Assembly (NCBI GenBank): GCA_951799405.1
Contig: OX637333.1
Location: 14,569,960 to 14,633,959, forward strand
Direction: 5' to 3'
Source of the DNA: Agapetus fuscipes
Taxonomy: Eukaryota > Arthropoda > Insecta > Trichoptera > Glossosomatidae
Length of the DNA: 64,000 nt
How positions within the stretch are numbered: position 1 is the stretch's first letter; every line of letters begins with the position of its first letter. Under the pieces are notes generated by a model that made no database searches, was not told the origin of the DNA, and worked only from the letters and a program-made list of their open reading frames with translations. The position numbers were made by a program, and so were the translations under genes. Positions 46,666-54,741 of this stretch are shown here, piece by piece.

Positions 46666-47172
46666 AGGTGACAATTAATCTTGGTATAATAAATCAAATA
46701 TGTGAGATTATGTTGGTGAAATTTTGACAGCTGTCAAACGACGCTTCCTAACTTGTCCCAACTATAGTATGCGTAGGCACGAAATCCAAATACATCGCAA
46801 AAAATTGAAGTTAGTGACCGTTTTTATTTACACAAAGATTTTTTTTAAGTGTGTTAATGTTCTTATGTCAACAAATTGTGGAATTCGGCTTTTTCAACAG
46901 TCCGTTTTCAAGGTCAACTTAAATATTATATTTTAAATACCTACAAAAAACAAAAATGAATGCTTTGAATTTATTGGTGGATGGTTCTACTCAATAGCAG
47001 TATTTCATGCGATTTTCGATCTTATTGCTGTGTAAAAACTAAAGAACAAATGAAAACAATCACGTTTAGTACTACGAGCGCGGATCCGCGTTCCGGCACT
47101 TGAGGAGTTAAACCAACAGCTTATGTGAACTCCATACCTAGTTGTTTGTTCATTGTGTTTTGATTGTTCCAG

Positions 47173-47395
47173 AGCAGAGACGGTCCGGTCAGCCCTGGAC
47201 GTGATATCGGCGTGCTGCGTGGCCCCGCGCGCCCAGCTGCTGCTCTGTGAGAAGGTGGACATGCCTGATGACGGTCCTCAAGTGGGCGTCAACATCGTGC
47301 TGGCCGCCGCAGAGGGGGAAATAGTACCAGACGCCGATGTGCAGAAGGCAGCACTCAATGTCATCGTCAACTGTGTGTGCTCACCGGTCCATAGA
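47173..47395 (+). CDS. DCAF1: DCAF1/VprBP (mahjong) next internal exon
   Basis: Acceptor TTGTTCCAG ends at 47172 and donor GTAAGC begins at 47396. After completing the split Arg codon it encodes AETVRSALDVISACCVAPRA, QLLLCEKVDMPDD, VGVNIVLAAAEGEIV and VQKAALNVIVNCVCSPVHR. The ETVRSALDV, AEGEI and ALNVIVNCVC blocks are the strongest match to DCAF1 that I recall. GC content is much higher than in the flanks. Together with 18216-18376 it defines the host gene. The next exon is not recognisable up to 64000. Confidence 0.8.
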
Positions 47396-48194
47396 GTAAG
47401 CTATAATTTCTCTATCATTAATGCCCTTCCAACATGTATAATATCCCTTTGCTATCACCCATAGTGAATAAAAAACTGAATAAAAATCAAATATGTTTTC
47501 TAGTTCACAGCGCTGATATCATGTCTCATTTTTTTATTGTTTACCTATTATCGTGTTTCCTGGCACGTTTATTACTATGGGAAAAAACAGAGTCTTTCGT
47601 GTATAAAAAATAAATTATCAAAACAAATTTGTATTTGCTTGGAGAGTAAAATTTATGAGCGGCTTTATCTTCACATTAACCCTTTGGCTGCGGCTGGCAT
47701 GCATAGATGTCATGACGTAACTTGTATACAGTGCGGCTGGCATCTATACATGTCATCAAAGTTTAAAGCTTTCCCTGACATCGGTGTTCAAATTTTTGAA
47801 ACTTTTTTGTTGCTTACATTATAGGACTACACTAATAAAAGCTCATATTATACATATTTTGAAAATATTCTTTCTCAAATATTTCGTCAGAACAGATCGA
47901 TCTCTCGTCCCGCGCGTGTGTACGTTTATAAAGAAAACCCAGGCAAGTATACTCAGTGCCGGTTGTAGCACTACCAGCGCCCTGGGCGAGATTTTTTAGG
48001 GCCCCCCCCTCCCCCCCACACCTATTCGCCATTCGAAAATTCAAATTCATACGAAAAAAAGGAATGTAGTAACCATTTATTAAAAAAATATATGACAATA
48101 CAGTTGACCGCTAATCAAATGGTGGAAAATATAAGCTTAGAGAGGGGATTTATGTCCAAAAAACTATTTTGAAAAATAATACATTTTTTAATAC
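47396..48194 (+). other. DCAF1: start of the following DCAF1 intron
   Basis: A TTAACCCTTTGGCTGC string at 47680 resembles the end of a piggyBac-type or similar element, but no second end was matched. The segment ends at the LTR retrotransposon. No exon was recognised. Confidence 0.45.
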
Positions 48195-48198
48195 ATAT

Positions 48199-48471
48199 TG
48201 TAACAATTATATTAAAGAAGGACACGCCTGAGCACAAGGCCAGGCTGGAGGGGGTAACGATAGGCTGGCGCGAGCAGTCTTGCAAAGCACGCACACAGAG
48301 CAAGATCTAGTTACTAGGGCGACCAATATGGTTTAAAATAACTGTAATCTGTACGAAATAAATAAGTGTGTTAAAATAAATCTATTGTAAGAAAGTCTGT
48401 GTAAATAAACTGTATGGCTAACTTGTGTTGAACTTGTGTTTTAATTAAGGACCCTCGGAAGAAACGTAACA
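48199..48471 (+). repeat. 5' LTR of the gypsy element
   Basis: TGTAACAATT...CGTAACA, 273 bp. AATAAA-type signals occur in its second half (GAAATAAATAAG and GTAAATAAACTG). No clear TATA box; insect LTRs often use initiator promoters. Confidence 0.95.
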
Positions 48472-48473
48472 AA

Positions 48474-48490
48474 TGGTGTCGGTGTGAAGT
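48474..48490 (+). promoter_or_regulatory. primer binding site
   Basis: TGGTGTCGGTGTGAAG begins two bases after the LTR. TGG at the start is the complement of a tRNA CCA end. Which tRNA primes was not determined. Confidence 0.7.
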
Positions 48491-48893
48491 TTAAAACCAA
48501 GTACTTAACCAAGTACCAAAAAAACTGTGCTTGAGATTATTAAAACAAAATCTGAATTGACAATGTTTTAAATATTAAAATATTTCGGGGACATTATGAA
48601 ACTTGTAATTATTGTGCGTAACTAACTACCTAGGTACCTACAACATTCGCGAATTCAAAATTATTATTGACTATTATTATGTACCTACGCTGTTGTTACT
48701 GACAGCCGAAGTGATATTGTGTTTGAAGCAGGTAGGTACCTACTTGTGCAAAACACTTTTGAAATAAAAATAAATTATTATTGTAAACAGTGAAAGAATT
48801 ACAAAAACCCATATAGTTCGGCATTCCATTTAAATTTTGTTGTTTTCGTAAATAAATAAAAAAAAAAAAAATACAAATAAATTGAAGTGAAAC

Positions 48894-50231
48894 ATGGCCC
48901 AGTATATTGCCGTGTTGGACTTAAAAGTTTGTGAGCTAAAGGATGAGCTCATTGAACGCGACCTTGAAAGCACTGGCAACAAAAATGCCTTGCAGGCGAG
49001 GCTTATGGAAGCCCTGGAGAAAAATGGAGAAGACCCGAACGCCTTTGTTTTATTATCGGGAAAGAATCGGGGCTTTGACGAGCTTAATCTCAGCATCATC
49101 GAGAGCTCCAAAAGTTTGAAGGAAGAGATGGCCGAGAGCTCCAAAAGTTTGAAGGAAGAGATGGCCGAGAGCTCCAAAAGTTTAAAGGAAGAGATGGCCG
49201 ACAATTCCAGAACCCTGGAAGAGAAGCTGGGGACCCTTAAAAATGAGATGGCTGACAACTCTAAAGCCCTTGAGGCTCTGGCAGAGAATATGGCGGAGAG
49301 CAACAAAAATCTCAAGGAGGAACTGAGTGGTTTGATGGCGCAGAACTTGACCAGTCTCGAAGAAAAGCTCGATGAGAAGATTTCTGAAGGTTCCCGAGCG
49401 GTGATGGAAATTGAGGCACGTGTTGCAAGCCTTGAAAACCGTCTTCGTGCCGCCGTGAGTAGTGAAAAGCCTTTGCCGGATGATAAAACACGGCATGAAC
49501 TTAACGAAGACACCGTGACTGGTAAAACCATTCCTACAAAACATGATTTACCAACTTTCGATGGGAAGTCATCCTGGGAATGGTACATGACCCTATTCGA
49601 AACGGCAGCTATGTTGGGAAATTGGTCTCCACAGAGCAAGGCGTCCATGCTCAGCCTGTCACTTAGAGGAGATGCTCTGCGTGTGCTGCAGTCCATTCCT
49701 TTGGAAAACCGAGGGAATTATTTGGAGCTGAAGCAGCGCCTAGACATGCGCTTTGGGCACAAGTACCTGGAACAACTTTACAAATCCCAGCTAAATACCA
49801 GAGTACAGACAGCAAAGGAAAGTCTTCAAGAATTCGAGATGGACATTGCCCGACTAGTGAGAGATGCATACCCCTCAGCCCCTGACGACATTTATGAGAG
49901 TCTGGCCGTGGACAAATTCCTCAATGGACTGCATGAATGGGAGACACAACAAGCGGTGAAACTGGCCCACCCAAAGACACTTAATGAGGCTTTAACCCAA
50001 GCATTGGAGTTTGAGGCCATCAAACAATCGATCAGAGGACATGTCAAAGTACGCGGTGTTGATGCAGAAGAAGCCAAGCCACCTTCGATTGAAGAACTAA
50101 TCGGAAAGGTGTTGGAACGGCTAAGGCCCAGGAGGCGAGGAGTACGCTGCTGGAACTGCGGCCAACTGGGTCATCTGAGCATCAAATGTCCAAAACCCCA
50201 GAAACCCAAACCACAAGTCTCGGAAAACTAG
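48894..50231 (+). CDS. gag: Gag with SAP-like domain, coiled coil and CCHC zinc knuckle
   Basis: 445 residues from ATG at 48894. Residues ~10-45 (LKVCELKDELIERDLESTG, then LQARLMEALEKNG) fit the SAP fold, a DNA-binding helix pair. Residues ~70-185 are a coiled coil with three 11-residue repeats ESSKSLKEEMA (exact 33-bp units at 49101-49199). A Gag capsid-like region follows, with W(E)WYMTLFETAAMLGNW and YLEQLYKSQLNTRVQ. Near the C-terminus CWNCGQLGHLSIKC is a CCHC knuckle for RNA binding. The frame is intact. The protein should form the particle core and package the RNA. It overlaps pol, which lies in the -1 frame. Confidence 0.93.
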   Translation: MAQYIAVLDLKVCELKDELIERDLESTGNKNALQARLMEALEKNGEDPNAFVLLSGKNRGFDELNLSIIESSKSLKEEMAESSKSLKEEMAESSKSLKEEMADNSRTLEEKLGTLKNEMADNSKALEALAENMAESNKNLKEELSGLMAQNLTSLEEKLDEKISEGSRAVMEIEARVASLENRLRAAVSSEKPLPDDKTRHELNEDTVTGKTIPTKHDLPTFDGKSSWEWYMTLFETAAMLGNWSPQSKASMLSLSLRGDALRVLQSIPLENRGNYLELKQRLDMRFGHKYLEQLYKSQLNTRVQTAKESLQEFEMDIARLVRDAYPSAPDDIYESLAVDKFLNGLHEWETQQAVKLAHPKTLNEALTQALEFEAIKQSIRGHVKVRGVDAEEAKPPSIEELIGKVLERLRPRRRGVRCWNCGQLGHLSIKCPKPQKPKPQVSEN

Positions 50232-53200
50232 AAAGGGTTGATGGGAAGGGGCAACTGTTGACCCGCGTTGGAGAGGCCCGGAAATCTGCTGCTATTGTCG
50301 CAACCTTGAAAGGTCGAGCTAGCAGCATCTTCATTAATGGCATGATAGATGGAAGGAATTGTGAACTACTGGTGGACACAGGAGCAACCAGGACGATTGT
50401 AAGACCAGACATAGCGACAAAGCAGAAGCAAATTTTACCAACAAGATGGTCTTTGCGTACAGCAACGGGAGAGTCAGCTCGAGTACACGGGGAGACGCTG
50501 GCAACCTTCCAGATTGGCAGCATGACTATCGAACATCGAACCTTGATGGCCAATATTGAAGAAGAAGTTATTATTGGGATGGATATGCTCACTAGACTTG
50601 GATGTAATCTGGACCTGAAGAAAGGGACCATAATTATTGGGAACGAAGAGATCATTATCCAAAAACGCAATGACATGGCCACTCGAGTAGTCGTAGCAGA
50701 GACTACAGAATTGAAAAAAAACTCCGAGATGATAGTACCAGCACGTTTTGACTCCAAGTGTGCAGAAGGACAGATTATTATGATGGAACCCGAGAAGATT
50801 GGCAAGATTGCAAAAGGAGTTCTAGTTGCCAGCGCAGTAATCCGCACACAAAAGATAGTCCCAATACGGGTGATGAACATAAATGATTATCCTATTACAA
50901 TACACGAAGGCAGCACCCTGGGTAATTGCGTGATAATGATGTCCATTGTACGGAACGTGAAGAGTTCGAGCTACCAGGAAGGAAAGTTGCCTGGCCGATT
51001 AGATGAACTCACTCAGAGAGCTTGCCGAGAGCTTCCCGAAGAGGATGAATGGAAAGTAAAAAATCTTCTTTGCCGATATCAAGACATCTTTGAGGATTCC
51101 AACGGACCGTTGGGAAGAACCAAAATTGTACGACACTGCATTGACACTGGAGACTCAAGGCCAATTCGACAGGCACCGCGAAGGCTACCCTTTGCCAAGC
51201 GCGAGGAAGCAGACACAATTATCCAAGACATGCAACGGGACGGCATCATCGAACCATCAAACAGCCCGTGGACATCACCAGTTGTGTTAGTCAAAAAAAA
51301 AGATGGAACGACAAGGTTTTGCGTTGACTATCGTCAGCTCAATGATGTCACAAAGAAAGACAGCTACCCTTTGCCCAGAATAGACGACACTTTGGACACT
51401 TTGACAGGATGTGAGATCTTCTCAACTCTCGATTTGAAGAGTGGATATTGGCAGGTGGAATTGAATCCAAAGGATAAAGAGAAAACTGCCTTTTCGACAG
51501 GTTCTGGACTCTGGCAATTTACCGTTATGCCATTTGGGCTGTGCAATGCACCTGCTACGTTTGAACGCCTGATGGAAAGCGTGCTACGTGGATTATCCTG
51601 GGAAAAATGTCTAGTATATTTGGATGACATCATTATTCTTGGAAAAACTTTTGATGACCAGCTGAAGAATCTGGAACAGGTATTTCTAAAATTGCAACAA
51701 GCCGGGCTAAAGCTCAATCCAAAGAAATGTAACCTTTTTCAAAAACAAGTGAGCTATCTGGGGCACATAGTATCCGGAAAAGGGGTAGCAGTTGACCCAG
51801 AAAAGACTAGAGCTGTCAAAGACTGGCCGGTCCCGAGGGACAAGCATGAGGTCAGAAGCTTCCTGGGATTGTGTACCTACTACCGTCGATTTGTGCCAAG
51901 GTTTGCAGACATTTCTAAGCCATTGACTCGTCTCACCGAGGAGAAAAACAGCTTTGTATGGACAAATGACTGCCAACAGGCATTTGAAGAACTAAAAAAA
52001 CGTCTTACTAGTGCGCCAATCTTGAGTTACCCCAGATATGAAGGGCAATTCATCCTAGACACAGATGCCAGTAATGTCGGTATTGGGGGAGTTCTTTCCC
52101 AAATTCAGGATGGCCAAGAGACAGTGCTTGGATACTTCAGCAAAGTACTATCAAAACCAGAGCGGAACTATTGCGTCACTAGAAGAGAACTCCTGGCTGT
52201 GGTTAAATCAGTGGAACATTTCCGGAAGTACCTTTATGGAAGGAAATTCTTGTTGCGGACAGACCATGCCGCTCTGATGTGGTTGTTGAAATTCAAAAAC
52301 CCTGAGGGTCAAGTAGCCAGGTGGATGGAGAGACTCCAAGAATATGATTTTGATGCTGTACATCGAGCAGGAATTATCCATCATAATGCCGACGCTTTGT
52401 CAAGAAGGCCTTGTCACGAAGACTGCAGACATTGCAGCAGAGTGGACACAAAGGCTGCTATAGTAAGCCGGACGACAGTCACGAGCGAGGATTGGAGAGA
52501 AGAAGAAATGAGGCAGGACCAAGAGAACGACCCAGAGCTGAAGTATCTAATACAATGGGTGCGAGAAAAACAAAGGCCAACCTGGGAACAAGTCGCCCCG
52601 TTATCACCAACCGTCAAATCGTATTGGGCTCAGTGGAACTCCATACAACTGGAAAATGGGAAACTTAAACGAGCAATTGAAAACGAAGACGGTACAGTGA
52701 AGAAACTTCAGTTACTGGTACCAAAAGTGCGAGTCGCTGAAATCTTGAAGCTACTGCATGATGGGACGTCCGGTGGACACTTAGGAGTGAAAAAGACTCT
52801 GGAGAAACTGAGGGATCGGTTCTACTGGGTGAACTGCAAGGAAAATGTAAAAGATTGGTGCCGGAAATGCGTGACATGTGCCACAGCTAATGGACCCTTA
52901 AGAAAGAAGAGAGCCCCCATGCGCCAGTACAATGTTGGGAGCCCATTTGAAAGGATCGCTATTGACATCGCTGGTCCATACCCGACTACCGAAGATGGCA
53001 ACAAGTACATTCTGGTGGCCATGGACTATTTCAGTAAATGGGTAGAAGCATACGCTTTACCCAACCAAGAAGCCGTTACGGTAGCAGAAGCGCTGGTGAC
53101 CCAACTGATAAGCCGATTTGGAGTACCACTGGAACTGCACTCTGATCAAGGGCGGAACTTTGAGGCCACAGTATTCCAGCAAATGTGCGACTTGCTGGGG

Positions 53201-54028
53201 ATCAAGAAGACGAGAACCACAGCCCTGCATCCACAGTCTGATGGGATGGTAGAAAGGATGAACCGGACGGTTGGGAGATATTTGGCAAAGCATGTGTCAA
53301 GTCATCAGAGGGACTGGGACCGACATCTTCCCCTATTTCTTTTGGCTTATAGGTCTGCAGTTCACGAAACTACTGGCCAAACACCTGGGAGCATTCTTTT
53401 TGGGCGAGAACTGCGACTGCCATGTGACCTGAAGTTTGGGTGCCGACCGACTGAGGATCTTGCAGGAGAGGACTACGTCTCGGATCTCCGCAGGCGACTA
53501 AATGGTGCCCACGAGCAAGTGCGAGCAAACATCCGTGAGGCAAGTGGTCGGATGAAAGAGCGATACGACATCCGGGCTGAGGATGGTGGATACCAAGCTG
53601 GGGATTTAGTATGGCTGTTTGACCCAAAAAGGCGCCGAGGATACTCTCCAAAACTACAACGCTCATGGGATGGGCCGTATGAGGTCGTAAAACGCATCAA
53701 TGACATCATCTACAAGATAAGGAAAGAGCCAAGCGGAAAACCACGGATTGTCATTTTAACCGCCTCACACCATATCTGGGAAACAACCACGATGACAGCC
53801 CGGAGCAAAGAGCACGAAGGTGTGCCGGATTTAAGGGAGCAGCCACTTTTGATGATTTTTGGGTTGAAGCACAAGATGGGCGAAAAATTCGGCATGACAT
53901 TACCAAAGAAGTCCAACAGGATCTCTTTGCTGTACCATCTAACTACGCCATGGCTTGTTGCACGGCTGAAGACCTGGACATGTCTCGCGGGGTTGCTGGA
54001 GCATTCCGTAATAAGTTCGGCAAGGTAA
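50186..54028 (+). CDS. pol: Pol: protease, reverse transcriptase, RNase H, integrase
   Basis: The frame is -1 relative to gag and overlaps it by at least 46 bases, so expression by -1 frameshifting is likely. GGAAAAC just before the gag stop is the closest thing to a slippery site I see. Protease active site LLVDTGAT (residue 64), RT with FCVDYRQLND and YLDDIII (from residue 478), RNase H with LDTDASNVGIGG (about 625), integrase zinc region (GHLGVKK...CRKCVTC), then DIAGPYPT, LHSDQGRNFE and HPQSDGMVERMN. The C-terminal domain has YSPKLQRSWDGPYEVVKR. From about 53750 the annotated frame is probably not the true one: the conserved end of integrase (HFNRLTPYLG) appears in the -1 frame. Confidence 0.93.
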   Translation: MSKTPETQTTSLGKLERVDGKGQLLTRVGEARKSAAIVATLKGRASSIFINGMIDGRNCELLVDTGATRTIVRPDIATKQKQILPTRWSLRTATGESARVHGETLATFQIGSMTIEHRTLMANIEEEVIIGMDMLTRLGCNLDLKKGTIIIGNEEIIIQKRNDMATRVVVAETTELKKNSEMIVPARFDSKCAEGQIIMMEPEKIGKIAKGVLVASAVIRTQKIVPIRVMNINDYPITIHEGSTLGNCVIMMSIVRNVKSSSYQEGKLPGRLDELTQRACRELPEEDEWKVKNLLCRYQDIFEDSNGPLGRTKIVRHCIDTGDSRPIRQAPRRLPFAKREEADTIIQDMQRDGIIEPSNSPWTSPVVLVKKKDGTTRFCVDYRQLNDVTKKDSYPLPRIDDTLDTLTGCEIFSTLDLKSGYWQVELNPKDKEKTAFSTGSGLWQFTVMPFGLCNAPATFERLMESVLRGLSWEKCLVYLDDIIILGKTFDDQLKNLEQVFLKLQQAGLKLNPKKCNLFQKQVSYLGHIVSGKGVAVDPEKTRAVKDWPVPRDKHEVRSFLGLCTYYRRFVPRFADISKPLTRLTEEKNSFVWTNDCQQAFEELKKRLTSAPILSYPRYEGQFILDTDASNVGIGGVLSQIQDGQETVLGYFSKVLSKPERNYCVTRRELLAVVKSVEHFRKYLYGRKFLLRTDHAALMWLLKFKNPEGQVARWMERLQEYDFDAVHRAGIIHHNADALSRRPCHEDCRHCSRVDTKAAIVSRTTVTSEDWREEEMRQDQENDPELKYLIQWVREKQRPTWEQVAPLSPTVKSYWAQWNSIQLENGKLKRAIENEDGTVKKLQLLVPKVRVAEILKLLHDGTSGGHLGVKKTLEKLRDRFYWVNCKENVKDWCRKCVTCATANGPLRKKRAPMRQYNVGSPFERIAIDIAGPYPTTEDGNKYILVAMDYFSKWVEAYALPNQEAVTVAEALVTQLISRFGVPLELHSDQGRNFEATVFQQMCDLLGIKKTRTTALHPQSDGMVERMNRTVGRYLAKHVSSHQRDWDRHLPLFLLAYRSAVHETTGQTPGSILFGRELRLPCDLKFGCRPTEDLAGEDYVSDLRRRLNGAHEQVRANIREASGRMKERYDIRAEDGGYQAGDLVWLFDPKRRRGYSPKLQRSWDGPYEVVKRINDIIYKIRKEPSGKPRIVILTASHHIWETTTMTARSKEHEGVPDLREQPLLMIFGLKHKMGEKFGMTLPKKSNRISLLYHLTTPWLVARLKTWTCLAGLLEHSVISSAR

Positions 54029-54453
54029 CAACACCGGTGGAGTCGGGGCCTATTGCAGGGAGAGCATTACGACTACCTGGTGAAGAGCGTCACGCATACT
54101 GCCTGGTGACAAGGATGACAGTTTCGGAGAAGACTGGTTATCAAGACCTGTGGGACAGCCTCGTGCATCTACGGGACCAACTGATGCAAGCCGGCATTTC
54201 CAAGCTGGCCGTACCAAAGATGGGTGGTGGACCAGCAGGACGAGACTGGAGGATCATCAGGAACATAATGGAAACAGTCTTCGAAAATACTGGCATCGAA
54301 ATCCTGGTGTGCTGCGAGCAGCTGCAGAGAAGACACCCAGACGACCGGACGGTGGATTGTTACTTCTTCTCTAGAGCCGGATGCAGTCGAGGGACATCTT
54401 GCAGATACCGGCATGCTCCAGGTTCAAGACTGTTCCGGGACGGAACAGCCTAA
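53752..54453 (+). CDS. macro domain + CCCH zinc finger continuing Pol in the -1 frame
   Basis: The frame is open from 53704 and meaningful from 53752, where HFNRLTPYLG (usual integrase end) is followed by a linker, a macro domain (about 53880-54325) and a zinc finger. Macro landmarks: QQDLFAVPSNYAMACC, DMSRGVAGAFRNKFG, YCLVT, KLAVPKMGGGPAGRDW and a GIEILVCCEQ strand, closest to OARD1/TARG1-type ADP-ribose hydrolases. The finger is C-x7-C-x5-C-x3-H (54358-54414). The first ATG (53950, 167 residues) would cut off the DLF strand, so the module is likelier made as a Pol extension than separately. In this copy a one-base indel or a second -1 frameshift separates it from pol. Role is inferred: binding or reversing ADP-ribosylation. 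Confidence 0.8.
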   Translation, partial: HFNRLTPYLGNNHDDSPEQRARRCAGFKGAATFDDFWVEAQDGRKIRHDITKEVQQDLFAVPSNYAMACCTAEDLDMSRGVAGAFRNKFGKVTTPVESGPIAGRALRLPGEERHAYCLVTRMTVSEKTGYQDLWDSLVHLRDQLMQAGISKLAVPKMGGGPAGRDWRIIRNIMETVFENTGIEILVCCEQLQRRHPDDRTVDCYFFSRAGCSRGTSCRYRHAPGSRLFRDGTA

Positions 54454-54464
54454 GGAGGGGGCAA
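54452..54464 (+). promoter_or_regulatory. polypurine tract
   Basis: AAGGAGGGGGCAA directly before the 3' LTR, overlapping the TAA stop of the last frame. It would prime plus-strand DNA synthesis. Confidence 0.85.
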
Positions 54465-54737
54465 TGTAACAATTATATTAAAGAAGGACACGCCTGAGCA
54501 CAAGGCCAGGCTGGAGGGGGTAACGATAGGCTGGCGCGAGCAGTCTTGCAAAGCACGCACACAGAGCAAGATCTAGTTACTAGGGCGACCAATATGGTTT
54601 AAAATAACTGTAATCTGTACGAAATAAATAAGTGTGTTAAAATAAATCTATTGTAAGAAAGTCTGTGTAAATAAACTGTATGGCTAACTTGTGTTGAACT
54701 TGTGTTTTAATTAAGGACCCTCGGAAGAAACGTAACA
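54465..54737 (+). repeat. 3' LTR of the gypsy element
   Basis: 273 bp and, on reading, identical to 48199-48471. Followed by ATAT. Confidence 0.95.
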
Positions 54738-54741
54738 ATAT

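What the first reader, a model, noticed from the sequence alone, without database searches (positions are those of the whole stretch)
53752..54453. Gypsy retrotransposon carrying an OARD1/TARG1-like macro domain plus CCCH zinc finger
Seen: after the integrase end motif the same frame holds DLFAVPSNYAMACC, RGVAGAFRNKFG, KLAVPKMGGGPAGRDW and a C-x7-C-x5-C-x3-H finger. Known: macro domains bind or remove ADP-ribose, and several RNA viruses use them against host PARP defences; PARP13/ZAP pairs CCCH fingers with antiviral RNA binding. Inference: this retroelement captured a host-like ADP-ribose module, possibly to counter ADP-ribosylation-based or zinc-finger-based silencing, or to act on the particle or RNA. 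I know of no described Ty3/gypsy element with this module.
Basis: partly seen in the sequence, partly recalled or inferred. Interest (0 to 1): 0.93.

Follow-up and report, generated by a model that had tools for sequence, protein, structure and literature searches.

The report
Integrase-fused ADP-ribose domain in retrotransposons
A family of insect jumping genes has joined a copy of a cellular ADP-ribose-handling domain, plus a small zinc finger, to the end of the enzyme that pastes the element into the genome, a combination that may help it read or clear a host DNA-damage mark.

The parts
48195..48198 (.). target-site duplication ATAT, left copy
   Evidence: 14 of 14 other copies with both ends readable (of 20 fetched) also have a 4-bp duplication
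48199..48471 (+). 5' LTR, 273 bp
   Evidence: identical to the 3' LTR, 0 differences
48891..50231 (+). gag ORF (SAP domain, CCHC knuckle; a weak Ty3-capsid match between them)
   Evidence: SAP 1.6e-9 and zf-CCHC 3.6e-5 above Pfam cut-off, Ty3_capsid 0.0024 below it
50093..54028 (+). pol frame (protease, RT, RNase H, integrase); meaningful up to about 53.75 kb, where this copy changes frame
53704..54453 (+). frame with integrase tail (from 53752), macro domain and CCCH finger
   Evidence: in one frame with integrase in L031 and L032
53911..54309 (+). TARG1-type macro domain core (residues 54-186 of P0001)
54358..54414 (+). C-x7-C-x5-C-x3-H finger
54465..54737 (+). 3' LTR, 273 bp
54738..54741 (.). 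target-site duplication ATAT, right copy

Best explanation
A Ty3/gypsy lineage of insects acquired a TARG1/OARD1-type macro domain and a CCCH finger and carries them as the last part of Pol, joined to the C-terminal domain of integrase (shown). Inferred: the module stays with, or near, integrase in the pre-integration complex and recognises ADP-ribose put by PARPs on chromatin or on single-stranded DNA at nicks and gaps, the structures that integration makes. In ancestors and in the beetle elements it can also remove the mark as TARG1 does; in the window family, which has lost Lys84 and Asp125 but keeps the loop glycines that TARG1 needs to hold ADP-ribose, it acts as a reader that holds the complex on marked DNA. 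The finger would add nucleic-acid contact. It works like the chromodomain behind the integrase of chromoviruses (recalled), with another mark.
For: Fusion: one ORF of 1453 aa and one of 1422 aa in two families, P0008 of Callosobruchus with RT, integrase and macro, P0005, P0006, P0016 with the integrase C-terminus or its end motif before the macro domain. Fold. G43 and G123, whose change to Glu abolishes ADP-ribose binding by TARG1 (passages of PMC5928194), are G in both families of this genome, I44 is V or I. Between these two families the adenine/phosphate loops are 13 of 14 identical against 52 of 114 elsewhere, Fisher p 0.0006 (sites chosen). TARG1 clears ADP-ribose from DNA and K84A cannot (passages of PMC8501950; of PMC11102865, which names exposed single-stranded DNA as the preferred PARP1 substrate). 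A macro domain also lies between RNase H and the integrase zinc domain of a second lineage. Gag of both families carries a SAP domain, a DNA/chromatin-binding type (recalled).
Against: No binding, enzyme or localisation data. Whether protease cuts the module off integrase is unknown. The macro domain changes fast in this genome's families: family 1 v family 2 RT 89%, macro 51%, pN 0.067 v 0.337, about as fast as the linker (0.283). Against the consensus of the K/D-keeping rows the loops of the window copy are not significantly better kept (10 of 14 v 56 of 117, p 0.08; P0002 p 0.17; P0006 p 0.33; family 2 and P0003 p 0.003), and K/D-keeping rows show the same excess (0.84 v 0.54), so it may reflect fold alone. 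The model is poor (pLDDT under 50) over residues 72-81, which hold the first phosphate loop. P0006 has lost G123. Target choice is explained by a short sequence preference (26 of 27 N-TA-N) and says nothing about ADP-ribose. ALC1-like SCO6735 lacks the pair and is still active (passages of PMC9411070), so 'reader only' is not sure.
Confidence: 0.42

Rival explanations
1. Counter-defence: the module removes or masks ADP-ribose that host PARPs place on element RNA, cDNA or proteins, and so blunts silencing.
For: TARG1 catalytic pair kept in 12 of 17 type-A rows and at 9 of 9 type-B places. In flies without PARP-1 mobile elements tend to be up-regulated, several of the gypsy superfamily, though for most of these the change did not pass the authors' thresholds (passages of PMC7712786). 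Fast change of the module in this genome would fit an arms race.
Against: Pair lost in the window family, family 2, P0002, P0003 and P0006. Fusion to integrase rather than a separate ORF. PMC7712786 itself says the de-repression may be indirect.
Confidence: 0.3
2. Passenger: useful once, now decaying in the window lineage under weak constraint.
For: Loss of both catalytic residues, fast change, long branches in the tree; L029 and L030 differ from L005 by 1:5 and 2:5 silent:replacement changes in the module; 5 of 17 type-A rows lack the full finger pattern, four of them because they end early or differently and one for want of the first Cys.
Against: Frame open through the module in L031 and L032. 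Nine loci, L017-L025, differ from L005 by 6-9 silent and 3 replacement changes; for 6:3 p 0.007 against neutrality (one branch, picked after the count). pN/pS about 0.44 with saturated pS between families. Finger spacing intact in 12 of 17 rows.
Confidence: 0.17
3. RNA module: macro domain and finger bind element RNA for packaging or reverse transcription.
For: Closest PDB relatives of the finger are CPSF4 and RBM22, RNA binders (recalled); TARG1 itself binds RNA outside its ADP-ribose pocket (passages of PMC5928194).
Against: Gag already has a CCHC knuckle; does not explain keeping the catalytic pair in most relatives seen.
Confidence: 0.1
4. Artefact: host OARD1 exon next to a gypsy element, or mis-assembly.
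For: This copy has a frame break between integrase and module.
Against: 150 matches among 150 scored of 1103 candidates, continuous ORFs, distinct host OARD1 loci, same fusion in a beetle.
Confidence: 0.01

Closest known systems
TARG1/OARD1/C6orf130 (ALC1-like macro domain)
   Same: Best match in sequence and fold (type B); ADP-ribose-loop glycines G43 and G123 kept in both families
   Different: Part of retroelement Pol; Lys84 and Asp125 replaced in the window family; S-R-G instead of G-A-G in loop 1 in 15 of 17 type-A rows
Chromoviruses (Ty3/gypsy with chromodomain behind integrase; recalled)
   Same: Chromatin-type module at the C-terminus of integrase
   Different: Macro domain and CCCH finger; no chromodomain listed by Pfam at E 0.1
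[quoted passage not shown] 2009 as cited in one passage of PMC4977317)
   Same: Retroelement with a macro domain
   Different: There additional ORFs of a vertebrate retrovirus group; here fused inside Pol of insect gypsy elements; class of the fish domain not seen by me
Bdelloid LTR elements with captured DEDDy and GDSL ORFs (passages of PMC5408684)
   Same: Repeated capture of cellular enzyme domains by LTR elements
   Different: Separate third ORFs, other domains
Macro domains of alphaviruses and coronaviruses
   Same: Mobile genome with a macro domain; same fold
   Different: MacroD-like class, in the replicase (both recalled); matched less well than TARG1

Membership tests
Ty3/gypsy LTR retrotransposon | Pol order protease-RT-RNase H-integrase | tested here: met
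   on L031; on the window
Ty3/gypsy LTR retrotransposon | paired LTRs and short target-site duplication | tested here: met
   window plus 14 of 14 readable copies (6 of 20 fetched had no 5' LTR start in the stretch)
Ty3/gypsy LTR retrotransposon | place within a named gypsy clade by RT tree | not tested
   no named reference set on hand
TARG1-like macro domain | sequence and fold closest to TARG1 | tested here: met
TARG1-like macro domain | catalytic Lys84 and Asp125 | tested here: not met
   window family R and A in 30 of 30 loci; pair kept in 12 of 17 type-A rows, the window being one of the 17
TARG1-like macro domain | ADP-ribose binding | not testable with these tools
   loop glycines kept
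CCCH zinc finger | C-x7/8-C-x5-C-x3-H spacing | tested here: met
   window yes; 12 of 17 type-A rows in all; P0009 lacks the first Cys, P0008, P0011, P0012, P0016 end early or differently
CCCH zinc finger | Pfam zf-CCCH cut-off | tested here: inconclusive
   window 16.8 below 20.5; 1 of 10 relatives scanned above (P0003, 21.3)
Chromovirus | chromodomain at the end of integrase | tested here: not met
   none listed at E 0.1; macro domain there instead

The most novel reading that the evidence does not exclude
At least two gypsy-type lineages separately placed a TARG1 domain next to integrase, one behind and one in front of it, and use ADP-ribose recognition or removal at PARP-marked DNA to choose or complete integration: the first integrase-linked ADP-ribose reader/eraser.
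Probability: 0.35. Interest if true: 0.92.

Novelty: new variant of a known kind. Interest (0 to 1): 0.77.

Why it matters
It would link PARP signalling directly to retroelement integration. Retroviral and gypsy integrases are known to use chromatin tethers, but none known to me reads ADP-ribose. Natural elements with and without the catalytic residues, two families of them multi-copy and the window family young, make reader versus eraser testable with isolated domains and with existing insertion sites.

Tried and rejected
Rejected: chance motif match, host OARD1 neighbour, single odd copy. Led nowhere: viral-contig scan with the type-A profile gave 29 loci on IMG/VR contigs; I used 27 as tree or tally rows under the label phage and did not inspect their neighbours, so neither their hosts nor absence of retroelements is checked. 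With the type-B segment 9 stretches matched a pattern and none encodes a relative. The macro tree does not settle the number of captures: AU p 0.365 for A+B together, 0.31 for A+host, 0.30 for B+host. dS between families is saturated in most domains. I looked for further DCAF1 exons in the window with guessed motifs and found none, so an intronic insertion is not shown. The search for further type-A families with P0010 (150 of 1083 candidates scored) gave the two known families again for most rows and some lower-identity rows that I did not open. Paper searches without a gypsy element with this module: (25 was on TARG1; others gave the fish review). Senti et al. PMC12992720 and Troyka PMC12440569: term look-ups only, no macro domain found. 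Fold lists: chains absent are not taken as negatives.

Dropped rows: L015 from the silent/replacement count (an insertion puts it out of register); L062 and L063 from the tally; 13 of 27 viral-contig rows from the tree; L033 fetched and not used (no frame of 300 aa listed). The count treats codons with several changes roughly. Script slip: one search printed T under the label K84 because of an index; one search repeated the check.

Full report
What is there. The window holds one Ty3/gypsy element, 48199-54737, with two 273-bp LTRs without a difference and the 4-bp duplication ATAT. Gag (48891-50231) has SAP and CCHC domains above Pfam cut-offs; Pol has protease, RT, RNase H and integrase. The flagged stretch is the end of Pol: integrase tail, macro domain, CCCH finger. 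In this copy the frame changes just before the integrase tail. Two copies elsewhere in the same genome that I translated are continuous: L031 encodes 1453 aa and a second family, L032, 1422 aa, protease to finger (Pfam run on L031 only; L032 placed by alignment).

How common. In the genome of the window (618 Mb, 148 contigs; 21 contigs numbered up to C33 whose length I saw are 14-32 Mb, from which I infer, no more, a moth or butterfly) one search scored 150 of 1103 candidates and all 150 matched: 56 rows at 89-100% identity, some of them partial, and 94 at 50-52%; seven rows including the window share the top score. Of 20 copies whose 5' flank I fetched, 14 had both ends readable, and 14 of 14 have a 4-bp duplication; in 9 of the 14 the two LTRs have equal length and differ by 0-2 bases. 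Of 30 loci, 27 gave a 3' flank; 26 start N-TA-N and 24 R-TA-Y, against 7.8% TA and 2.1% R-TA-Y in the window. So the family is young and inserts at a short palindromic site. Three of the 30 (L028-L030) have another LTR with nearly the same module.

Outside this genome. One search found 6 proteins, one (P0008, Callosobruchus maculatus, RT + integrase + macro, cut short in the finger), one search listed 120 of 1262, mostly vertebrate OARD1, among them macro-domain proteins of the beetles Brassicogethes, Aromia, Callosobruchus, Pyrocoelia and Acanthoscelides (names as given by the sources). Judged by eye, the linker before the macro domain is shared with the retroelement rows and absent from OARD1. 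In a tree of 45 rows (14 of 27 viral-contig rows kept) the 17 type-A rows form one group, 98/99. The full finger pattern is present in 12 of 17.

Catalytic residues. Lys84 and Asp125 are both present in 12 of 17 type-A rows, 3 of 3 type-B rows, 3 of 3 host OARD1 rows, 8 of 8 vertebrate rows that I picked and 27 of 27 viral-contig rows; both are replaced in the window (R, A), family 2 (P, A), P0002 (G, A), P0003 (P, A) and P0006 (R, G). Rows are not independent: P0003 is nearly family 2, four rows are Callosobruchus. In 30 of 30 loci of the window family the residues are R and A. K84A is inactive in TARG1 (PMC8501950, passages; review PMC7050489, passages), yet SCO6735 works without the pair (PMC9411070, passages). 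G43 and G123, needed for ADP-ribose binding (PMC5928194, passages), are kept in both families; P0006 keeps G43 but not G123.

Constraint. Family 1 v 2: RT 89%, integrase core 84%, macro 51%, finger region 49% identical. The non-synonymous proportion of the macro is about five times that of RT; synonymous sites are saturated. Within family 1, six of the nine loci L017-L025 differ from L005 by 6 silent and 3 replacement changes in the module and the other three by 7-9 and 3 (p 0.007 for 6:3; one branch, tested after seeing it), while L029 and L030 lean the other way (1:5, 2:5). Loops: 13 of 14 v 52 of 114 between families (p 0.0006), but 10 of 14 v 56 of 117 for the window against the consensus of K/D-keeping rows (p 0.08), and K/D-keeping rows show 0.84 v 0.54 among themselves. 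So the module is kept and is probably under selection, but it changes fast, and the loop result does not single out binding from fold.

Mechanism. Shown: fusion to integrase, TARG1-type fold, catalytic pair lost here and kept in most relatives seen. Inferred: action at integration. TARG1 removes ADP-ribose from DNA, and exposed single-stranded DNA is the preferred PARP1 substrate for that mark (PMC11102865, passages); integration leaves single-strand gaps (general knowledge). A domain beside integrase, once behind and once in front of it, fits a role there. Counter-defence is nearly as good: PARP-1 loss tends to raise mobile-element transcripts in flies, gypsy-superfamily ones among them (PMC7712786, passages), perhaps indirectly as its authors say.

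Known or new. Ten full-text searches listed no gypsy element with a macro domain; one search showed 30 of 3315. Most subscription papers are not in that library. Fish epsilon-like ERVs with macro-domain proteins are on record (one passage of PMC4977317).

Noticed in passing
L114 (own genome C21:11269800-11279600), L067-L075: Second gypsy-type, three-ORF element family with a TARG1-like macro domain between RNase H and integrase, catalytic pair present in 9 of 9 places; copy number unknown because the search did not complete.
   Followed up: partly
window 47129-47461: Exon of a DCAF1 (VprBP) homologue (7.3e-17) about 0.7 kb before the element; further exons not found, so insertion inside the gene is not shown.
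   Followed up: partly
window 48921-49019; L034 gag: SAP domain at the start of Gag in both families, unusual for gypsy Gag as far as I recall.
   Followed up: partly
L005, L006, L007, L012, L021: Five of 27 copies share nearly the same 3' flank, as if inserted at one site of another repeat.
   Followed up: no
L001-L030: LTR length variants of 152, about 273 and about 302 bp, and a different LTR start in L028-L030, all with nearly the same macro domain.
   Followed up: no
L064, L065, L066: Three host OARD1-like places, two of them 86 kb apart on C31, with the catalytic pair.
   Followed up: partly
L035-L063: TARG1-like macro domains on 29 IMG/VR contigs; in the 27 longer matches both catalytic residues are kept.
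   Followed up: no
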